Shown here one piece after another: positions 33,418-34,692 of a stretch of 36,206 nucleotides of DNA. The stretch covers positions 1-36,206 of the forward strand of contig JALEJB010000100.1 in the NCBI GenBank assembly GCA_022768825.1. Reading direction: 5' to 3'. A program made the position numbers and the translations under genes. The stretch is from Lachnospiraceae bacterium. GTDB taxonomy: Bacteria; Bacillota; Clostridia; Lachnospirales; Lachnospiraceae. Under the pieces are notes generated by a model, which was not told the origin of the DNA, made no database searches, and saw only the letters and a program-made list of their open reading frames with translations. How positions within the stretch are numbered: the first letter of the stretch is position 1; each line of letters starts with the position of its first letter.

Positions 33418-34365
33418 TTATAATTTATACCGAGTAATATTTGCCCAATTAGGAGGGAAATGCATTGCATGAAGTAATTTGCTTTTTTGTGTTGCCAATG
33501 TGGCAGTTGAAAAAGTATTAAACAGCTTGGTTAATTCTTTCTTTAGCGATTTAAAATCTTCTTTATCCAGTAGGTATCGAAAAGCTATGAGCAATGCAAA
33601 CATATCATGCTTACCATAAAGATACTGTGTTCCTTTTTGTGGTATTCCCATTTTCTTATGCAGTGCAGTGTCAGGAATTTCGAATCTGGTTTTAAACGAA
33701 AATAGACGCTCGTTATGTGCACATATATTACGAAAAATGGTAAGCACCTTTAGATACTGGATTAATTCTTTTTCTGTAATATTGCCATAATGTACGCTAA
33801 CCTTGGATTTTATACTTGGGAGCATAAAGGAATACATTTTTGAAGTTTGACCAAGAGTAAGAGTTTTCATGATTACCCATAATGGAACATTACCATATGT
33901 GTTTCTCTGATATACTACATAACTATGTTCAGTGTTCTGATTGGCTTCGTATGTCAATATAGATATCAGTTTAGAAATATCACGACTGTTTTTCTTGGAA
34001 ATATTGTAGTTGGTAGGACTTAAGTATGCTGACTGATTTTCAGAAAAAGCTTCACAGAAGGAATAAGAAATCAATGAGCGGATTTTTTGTTCGACATGAC
34101 AAATGTATTTAAATACAAGAGAACGGAGATTTTCATCAAATTCATATAATGCAACAATATCCGTAAAATTTGTACCTTCCTCGTATGTTCTTGTCATTGG
34201 ATTGTAGAATATATCTTTGTATCCATCGATTAAGGAGTAGTAGCCAATATCATGCAACTTTCCCTCTGCATATGACAAATCAGAAATATTAAGTTGTTTT
34301 TTCTGAGTCAGAACATTTAACTGATCAGAGTATGTAATAAAAGGTTTAATTGCTTTCTTTGGCAT
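33418..34365 (-). CDS. Abi_2 (AbiD/AbiF-like) HEPN-domain abortive infection protein
   Basis: 'KPFITYSDQLNVLTQKKQLNISD...LHDIGYYSLIDGYKDIF', 'IVALYEFDENLRSLVFKYICHVEQKIRSLISY', HEPN RX4H 'FRNICAHNERLF'. SD GGAGA before ATG 34365. Confidence 0.88.
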   Translation of the reverse strand: MPKKAIKPFITYSDQLNVLTQKKQLNISDLSYAEGKLHDIGYYSLIDGYKDIFYNPMTRTYEEGTNFTDIVALYEFDENLRSLVFKYICHVEQKIRSLISYSFCEAFSENQSAYLSPTNYNISKKNSRDISKLISILTYEANQNTEHSYVVYQRNTYGNVPLWVIMKTLTLGQTSKMYSFMLPSIKSKVSVHYGNITEKELIQYLKVLTIFRNICAHNERLFSFKTRFEIPDTALHKKMGIPQKGTQYLYGKHDMFALLIAFRYLLDKEDFKSLKKELTKLFNTFSTATLATQKSKLLHAMHFPPNWANITRYKL

Positions 34366-34388
34366 ATTTTTCTCCATATATTTTGTAC

Positions 34389-34457
34389 AAAAAAAGGAAG
34401 GCCCGCAGGTCTTCCTTCCGGTCGCAGGCATCGCAAGTTTCTGCAACCTGATCACTA
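34389..34457 (-). ncRNA. Candidate AbiF-associated structured RNA (promoter-hairpin-terminator)
   Basis: Minus strand: TTGCAT-N17-TATCAT promoter (34464-34492), stem GGTTGCAG/CTGCGACC, then terminator AAGGAAG-A-CC-tgc-GG-G-CTTCCTT + T-run ending ~24 nt before the abi start. Confidence 0.6.
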
Positions 34458-34463
34458 ACAGAT

Positions 34464-34492
34464 ATGATACCATTGCTATCTGCTAAATGCAA
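34464..34492 (-). promoter_or_regulatory. Predicted promoter of the abi-upstream RNA
   Basis: TTGCAT-N17-TATCAT with extended -10 TGgTATCAT. Confidence 0.65.
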
Positions 34493-34692
34493 GCAGTATT
34501 TTGGCTAAATCTGCAATAATAGTATATGTAGTTTTAAAAGGTTTATGATAATCATTATGTGAAAGACAAAGATAATGTTATGTTCATTTTGCGAAGGTAA
34601 TAGTGGGTGATGTGTACATAGGAATTGCGGTGATATTTATGAATATAGAAGCATATGATGCAGAGTCTTTGAGGAAAGATGTTCAAGCAAAA

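What the first reader, a model, noticed from the sequence alone, without database searches (positions are those of the whole stretch)
33418..34500. Abi_2/AbiF HEPN protein with its own upstream structured RNA and terminator: candidate RNA-protein toxin-antitoxin
Seen on the minus strand: extended -10 promoter (TTGCAT-N17-TATCAT), an 8-bp stem-loop (GGTTGCAG/CTGCGACC), a strong intrinsic terminator ending ~24 nt before the SD/start of an Abi_2 protein bearing the HEPN RX4H motif (RNICAH). Known: an 'abiF RNA motif' has been described upstream of abiF genes, and AbiF-like HEPN proteins with ncRNA partners have been discussed as relatives of Cas13 ancestry. Promoter-RNA-terminator-toxin order also resembles type III TA systems, where limited readthrough makes the toxin. 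Inference: the ~70-nt RNA is a partner or antitoxin of this protein.
Basis: partly seen in the sequence, partly recalled or inferred. Interest (0 to 1): 0.8.

Follow-up and report, generated by a model that had tools for sequence, protein, structure and literature searches.

The report
RNA-guarded phage-defence toxin, new RNA
This gut-bacterium gene makes an RNA-cutting phage-defence protein, and just in front of it lies a small folded RNA, of a family absent from the public RNA library, that very probably keeps the protein switched off; several phages carry the same RNA without the protein, perhaps as a counter-weapon.

Summary
A 315-aa Abi_2/AbiF HEPN protein (33418-34365, minus) is preceded by a sigma-A promoter, a ~70-nt RNA (34457-34390) and a terminator. 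The RNA does not match Rfam's abiF family (RF03085), which does hit the positive control. It founds a separate, strongly covarying family: hairpin P1 is ~100% paired, 13 of 16 pairs show double-sided changes, 0 of 500 shuffles reach the score. In 397 genomes of the window's family, all 49 Abi_2 relatives of at least 37% identity with readable flanks have this RNA alongside; none of 9 more distant ones do. One locus has it only downstream, one has two tandem copies, and 33 of 87 RNAs stand without an adjacent toxin, some beside toxin remnants, yet keep the fold. The only significant PDB fold match is PbAbiF bound to its ncRNA. Best reading: a type III-like toxin-antitoxin of known mechanism with a new RNA class. 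Unexpected: phage contigs carry the RNA without any Abi_2, in tRNA clusters, at gene ends or upstream of terminase; in two pairs the RNA is 92-98% identical while upstream flanks are unalignable. These are candidate RNA antidotes. Binding, toxicity and phage protection are inferred, not tested.

The parts
33418..34365 (-). Abi_2/AbiF-type HEPN protein, 315 aa, predicted RNase toxin
   Evidence: Pfam Abi_2 E 2.8e-47; PADLOC AbiD 1e-61; PDB 8vz6 by sequence and by fold
33715..33732 (-). HEPN active-site motif RNICAH (R212 to H217)
   Evidence: R, N, C, A and H invariant in 41 relatives
34372..34375 (-). Shine-Dalgarno GGAG, 6 nt before the ATG
   Evidence: sequence
34390..34457 (-). Small RNA of family R1 (candidate antitoxin); expected transcript start near 34458
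   Evidence: R1 match 82.2 bits; covariation
34420..34448 (-). Hairpin P1 with a conserved loop (AAA, CUUGCGAUG, C)
   Evidence: 100% paired in 33 sequences, 5 of its 7 modelled pairs with double-sided changes
34389..34419 (-). Intrinsic terminator, conserved in shape as part of the RNA
   Evidence: helix about 93-95% paired
34464..34492 (-). Sigma-A promoter TTGCAT-N17-TATCAT, extended -10
   Evidence: same spacing and place in most toxin-linked relatives
34520..34528 (-). CATATACTA, possible -10 box of a second, sporulation sigma-E/K-type promoter
   Evidence: motif enriched at relatives; tentative

Best explanation
This is an AbiF/AbiD-type toxin-antitoxin unit built from a HEPN RNase and a small RNA. 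A sigma-A promoter makes a ~70-nt two-hairpin RNA (promoter and covarying fold shown by comparison; transcription inferred). Most transcripts should stop at the RNA's own terminator and limited read-through gives the toxin mRNA (inferred from layout and from the C. difficile system). The toxin dimer binds the RNA, which blocks the RNase site (inferred from PbAbiF-ncRNA and AbiFCd-RCd22). Phage infection would upset the RNA:toxin ratio and free the RNase to arrest the cell (inferred, least certain). The RNA belongs to its own family, distinct from Rfam abiF, that goes with one clade of Abi_2 proteins, and probably acts at least partly in trans, since it also occurs downstream, duplicated, and after toxin loss.
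For: Abi_2 domain, HEPN motif and PbAbiF fold. Covariation of both hairpins. Fixed promoter position. 49 of 49 readable relatives of at least 37% identity have the RNA. RNA downstream only in L045, on both sides in L051 and L061, tandem in L049. RNA kept where the toxin is eroded. Relatives are toxic and neutralised by an upstream RNA in cis and in trans (PMC12373285).
Against: No transcription, binding, toxicity or phage data for this locus. The RNA is not the known abiF motif, so transfer of mechanism rests on the protein and the layout. Some toxin-free RNAs may be recent relics rather than functional.
Confidence: 0.85

Rival explanations
1. The RNA is only a cis-acting leader or attenuator: its terminator limits toxin expression and opens on a signal, with no role as a separate molecule.
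For: Promoter-RNA-terminator-gene order in 52 of 54 toxin-linked RNAs. AbiD1 of Lactococcus is expressed by read-through of such a terminator (PMC2661086).
Against: RNA only downstream of the gene with its own promoter in L045, copies on both sides in L051 and L061. RNAs without toxin keep P1 98% paired and the loop. Phage copies without toxin are conserved. P1 and its loop are conserved beyond what a terminator needs.
Confidence: 0.1
2. The protein is an RNA-guided RNase like Cas13 and the RNA is a guide with a targeting segment.
For: AbiF is reported as the ancestor of Cas13 (PMC12737573).
Against: No variable segment: the RNA is almost unchanged in six close relatives and its loops are conserved in distant ones. 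No direct repeats in 34350-34900.
Confidence: 0.03
3. The conserved stretch is really coding sequence, an N-terminal extension of the protein.
For: The frame is open from 34473; some database clusters have 349-351 aa.
Against: The pattern is base-pair compensation across 72 sequences. Several relatives have open frames too short to include it. In L045 the RNA lies downstream of the gene. A -10 box ends 5-6 nt before the RNA, and a Shine-Dalgarno precedes the internal ATG.
Confidence: 0.01

Closest known systems
AbiFCd-RCd22 of C. difficile prophage phi027 (PMC12373285)
   Same: Abi_2 HEPN protein, upstream RNA from a sigma-A promoter, terminator before the gene, read-through order
   Different: RCd22 carries two RF03085 motifs; this RNA has one hairpin of another family plus a conserved terminator, and neither covariance model finds the other's RNA; the window locus is not in an obvious prophage
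PbAbiF bound to its ncRNA (PDB 8vz6)
   Same: Fold over the full length, TM 0.76/0.80; HEPN motif
Rfam RF03085 abiF RNA
   Same: Short hairpin with an internal loop upstream of Abi_2 genes
   Different: No match in the window even at E up to 10; different sequence and loop shape; goes with other Abi_2 clades (L033)
ToxIN and other classical type III toxin-antitoxins
   Same: Promoter, antitoxin RNA, terminator, RNase toxin; phage RNA mimics known (phiTE, PMC3475682)
   Different: Other toxin fold; RNA there is a tandem-repeat array, here usually a single unit
AbiD1 of Lactococcus lactis
   Same: Promoter and terminator upstream of the abi gene, ~50-base transcript (PMC2661086)
   Different: Activation reported through a phage protein acting on the mRNA; no RNA antitoxin described in that paper's passages read here

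Membership tests
AbiF/AbiD (Abi_2) HEPN proteins | Abi_2 domain | tested here: met
   161.8 bits against a cut-off of 25.6
AbiF/AbiD (Abi_2) HEPN proteins | HEPN R-x4-H motif | tested here: met
   RNICAH, invariant positions in 41 relatives
AbiF/AbiD (Abi_2) HEPN proteins | fold of a solved AbiF | tested here: met
   8vz6, E 3.9e-11, TM 0.76/0.80
AbiF/AbiD (Abi_2) HEPN proteins | RNase toxicity and phage resistance | not testable with these tools
   needs experiment
Rfam RF03085 abiF RNA | match to the covariance model | tested here: not met
   no hit at gathering or at E up to 10; the control phiC2 hits
Type III toxin-antitoxin | RNA upstream of the toxin with a terminator between | tested here: met
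Type III toxin-antitoxin | antitoxin RNA as tandem repeats | tested here: not met
   no direct repeat of 16 nt or more in 34350-34900; two copies only in L049
Type III toxin-antitoxin | ToxN/AbiQ/CptN toxin fold | tested here: not met
   only 8vz6 matches at E 0.001 or better
Type III toxin-antitoxin | RNA binds and neutralises the toxin in trans | not testable with these tools
   layouts are compatible with action in trans
CRISPR-Cas13 | repeat-spacer array beside the gene | tested here: not met
   no direct repeats in 34350-34900; no variable segment in the RNA

The most novel reading that the evidence does not exclude
Phages carry toxin-free copies of this RNA as RNA antidotes against AbiF-type defence. 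Examples: a 112.8-kb phage contig holds an RNA nearly identical to the window's just after a phage gene; two related phages share one at 98.5% identity; two temperate phages carry one upstream of terminase genes; two others carry one inside tRNA clusters. No Abi_2 gene was found on any of these contigs, some of which are fragments. This would be RNA mimicry of an AbiF antitoxin, parallel to phiTE pseudo-ToxI but recurrent and maintained by selection.
Probability: 0.5. Interest if true: 0.85.

Novelty: new variant of a known kind. Interest (0 to 1): 0.72.

Why it matters
AbiF systems are reported as the ancestors of Cas13, and one Rfam motif stands for their RNA partners. A second, sequence-unrelated RNA class tied to one protein clade shows that the partner RNA has been replaced or has diverged beyond recognition, which makes the rules of RNA-HEPN recognition testable by swapping partners. 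Toxin-free, conserved phage copies offer a ready set of candidate RNA counter-defences.

Tried and rejected
A longer RNA starting at the upstream CATATAAT box was considered because conservation among the closest relatives begins there; distant relatives fix the sigma-A promoter 5-6 nt before the RNA, so the short RNA stands, though that box may be a second promoter. Weak Rfam matches at E 1-10 (Atu_C8, SNORA66 and others) are chance. Patterns from the protein found no confirmed relative in viral contigs, although RNA patterns did (none). L140, L143, L153, L155, L157 and L162 match a DNA pattern but have no convincing R1 match. One search used a wrong Pfam accession, PF14552, and says nothing. 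Two terminase models found nothing on the L141, L145 and L154 contigs; the phage nature of the L145 and L154 contigs rests on other genes, and that of L141 on its similarity to L154. A human-microbiome catalogue of structured RNAs mentions no Abi gene in its main text. The 2017 paper that described abiF RNA is not held, and the 2025 PbAbiF paper was known only through others' citations.

Full report
What is there. On the minus strand the window holds a 315-aa protein (33418-34365) with a strong Abi_2 match, AbiD in PADLOC, and an invariant HEPN RNxCAH motif. The AlphaFold2 model is confident (mean pLDDT 95.4), and the only significant PDB match is PbAbiF bound to its ncRNA (8vz6; by fold, by sequence). 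Upstream are a promoter (34492-34464), an RNA (34457-34390) made of hairpin P1 and a terminator, and a Shine-Dalgarno site. Neighbouring genes are ordinary: cellulases, an LRR kinase, a Big_2 protein. Named close relatives are mostly Lachnospiraceae.

Is the RNA real? Five close relatives keep the hairpin region unchanged from the window's apart from one terminator base and T-run length, while several have unrelated DNA farther upstream. Among 33 diverse instances, 94.7% of pair cells are standard pairs, P1 is 100% paired, 13 of 16 pairs have changes on both sides, one position shows five pair types, no shuffle of 500 reaches the observed score, and sliding the structure by one column drops pairing to about 55%. 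With 72 distinct sequences the picture is the same (that alignment was fitted to the model and leans toward it). A promoter with 17-nt spacing sits with its -10 box 5-6 nt before the RNA in most toxin-linked loci. The RNA is not in Rfam: RF03085 gives nothing here but finds RCd22 in phage phiC2 and comes near its cut-off before another Abi_2 clade (L033, 32 bits against 37). Conversely R1 does not match phiC2 (L059).

Association. In 397 genomes of the window's family I paired the listed protein hits with RNA hits of at least 43 bits. All 36 Abi_2 relatives with 44% identity or more, and 13 of 14 at 37-43%, have the RNA within 600 nt; the exception starts 5 nt from a contig end. None of the 9 hits below 37% that I tabulated has it. 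The RNA is upstream in 52 cases and downstream in 2. In L045 it lies only downstream, behind its own promoter; L051 and L061 have copies on both sides; L049 has two in tandem.

RNA without toxin. Thirty-three of 87 RNAs have no adjacent Abi_2 hit. Of 20 inspected, several lie beside eroded pieces of the toxin gene (L097, L099, L103, L112, perhaps L110), while no toxin of this clade with readable flanks lacks the RNA. Toxin-free RNAs keep P1 98% paired and the same loop; 16 of 28 keep a good promoter. This asymmetry is what one expects of an antidote, although recent toxin loss could explain part of it. Four such RNAs precede a two-gene unit with a weak zeta-toxin match (L101, L109, L121, L124), and three precede a Phd/YefM-like antitoxin gene (L102, L149, L163).

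Phage copies. DNA-pattern scans of IMG/VR followed by R1 gave toxin-linked copies (L142, L146, L147, L148, L150, L151) and toxin-free copies on contigs where no Abi_2 was found. L145 lies on a 112.8-kb contig with a tape-measure protein, a dUTPase and tRNAs; its 64 nt align to the window RNA with only three mismatches and four missing 5' bases. L154 (163.5-kb contig with PhoH, DNA ligase, tail fibre, polynucleotide kinase and a PurZ-like synthetase) and L141 share the RNA at 98.5% and the preceding 50 nt at 100%, against 43-47% farther upstream and 73-75% downstream. L139 and L144 share the hairpin and the preceding 36 nt at about 92%, against 45-49% in flanks, and lie upstream of terminase genes. 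In L156 and L160 the hairpin lies in a tRNA cluster. Conservation of a toxin-free RNA in phages points to counter-defence, as with phiTE pseudo-ToxI (PMC3475682), but no function was tested and records may be fragments.

How it most likely works. By analogy with AbiFCd-RCd22, where the RNA neutralises the toxin in cis and in trans by direct binding and the R202/H207 pair is needed for toxicity (PMC12373285), the RNA is made in excess, read-through yields a little toxin, and the RNA holds the HEPN dimer inactive. Shown here: the RNA family, its association, its trans-compatible layouts, the protein fold and motif. Inferred: transcription, binding, toxicity, release on infection.

Possible second promoter. 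About 60-120 nt upstream of the RNA, 20 of 38 toxin-linked loci carry CATANNNTA (shuffle mean 2.7, maximum 8; reverse complement 4), with ATA 18-19 nt before it in 16 of 27 sites over all loci. This resembles a mother-cell sporulation sigma-E promoter, for which C. difficile work reports an ATA -35 motif (PMC3789822). The consensus scored came from memory: 66% of toxin-linked loci reach 12 of 15 matches, against 15% of shuffles, 14% of random windows and none of 15 distant Abi_2 loci. The window's own match lacks an ATA at the best spacing and scores 12. Its genome encodes SigE and a SpoIIGA-type protease. A sporulation role is a suggestion only.

Verdict. A real RNA-protein unit of the AbiF type with an RNA class absent from Rfam: new variant of a known kind. 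Whether the 2025 PbAbiF study already lists this RNA could not be checked.

Noticed in passing
L145 6040-6103 (-); L141 5186-5252; L154 1373-1439; L139 3911-3971; L144 301-343; L152 2488-2552; L156 7479-7534 (-); L160 3478-3555 (-): Toxin-free copies of the RNA on phage or prophage contigs without an Abi_2 gene, conserved where pairs can be compared: candidate phage-encoded RNA antidotes.
   Followed up: partly
window 34520-34528 (-) and the same region in about half of the relatives: Conserved CATANNNTA box upstream of the sigma-A promoter, often with an ATA or G[AC]AT element 18-21 nt before it: possible second promoter of sporulation sigma-E/K type.
   Followed up: partly
window 34480-34497: Inverted repeat around the -35 box (CTGCT-TGCATTT-AGCAG) whose arms change together in close relatives (CCGCT/AGCGG, CCACT/AGTGG); could be an operator or a hairpin of a longer transcript.
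   Followed up: no
L101 3401-3467 (-), L109 3368-3434 (-), L121 1501-1567 (-), L124 1501-1568 (-): The same RNA stands just before a two-gene unit, a 59-aa ORF and a kinase with a weak zeta-toxin match, instead of an Abi_2 gene.
   Followed up: partly
L163 5101-5167, L149 2556-2621, L102 1614-1679: The RNA stands before a Phd/YefM-like antitoxin gene, beside a divergent Phd-ParE pair (L163): a cluster of antitoxins.
   Followed up: partly
upstream of Abi_2 genes in L021-L035: Many other Abi_2 clades also have a hairpin and T-run upstream but with different RNAs: RF03085-like (L033, and by eye L024, L027, L028), a GTTGCCCGAAGTC type (L031, L035), and a TGGAACG..CTCCGGTGTCC type (L022, L029).
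   Followed up: partly
window 34366-34473 (-): The open frame continues through the RNA; public protein clusters of 349-351 aa are probably mis-started there.
   Followed up: no
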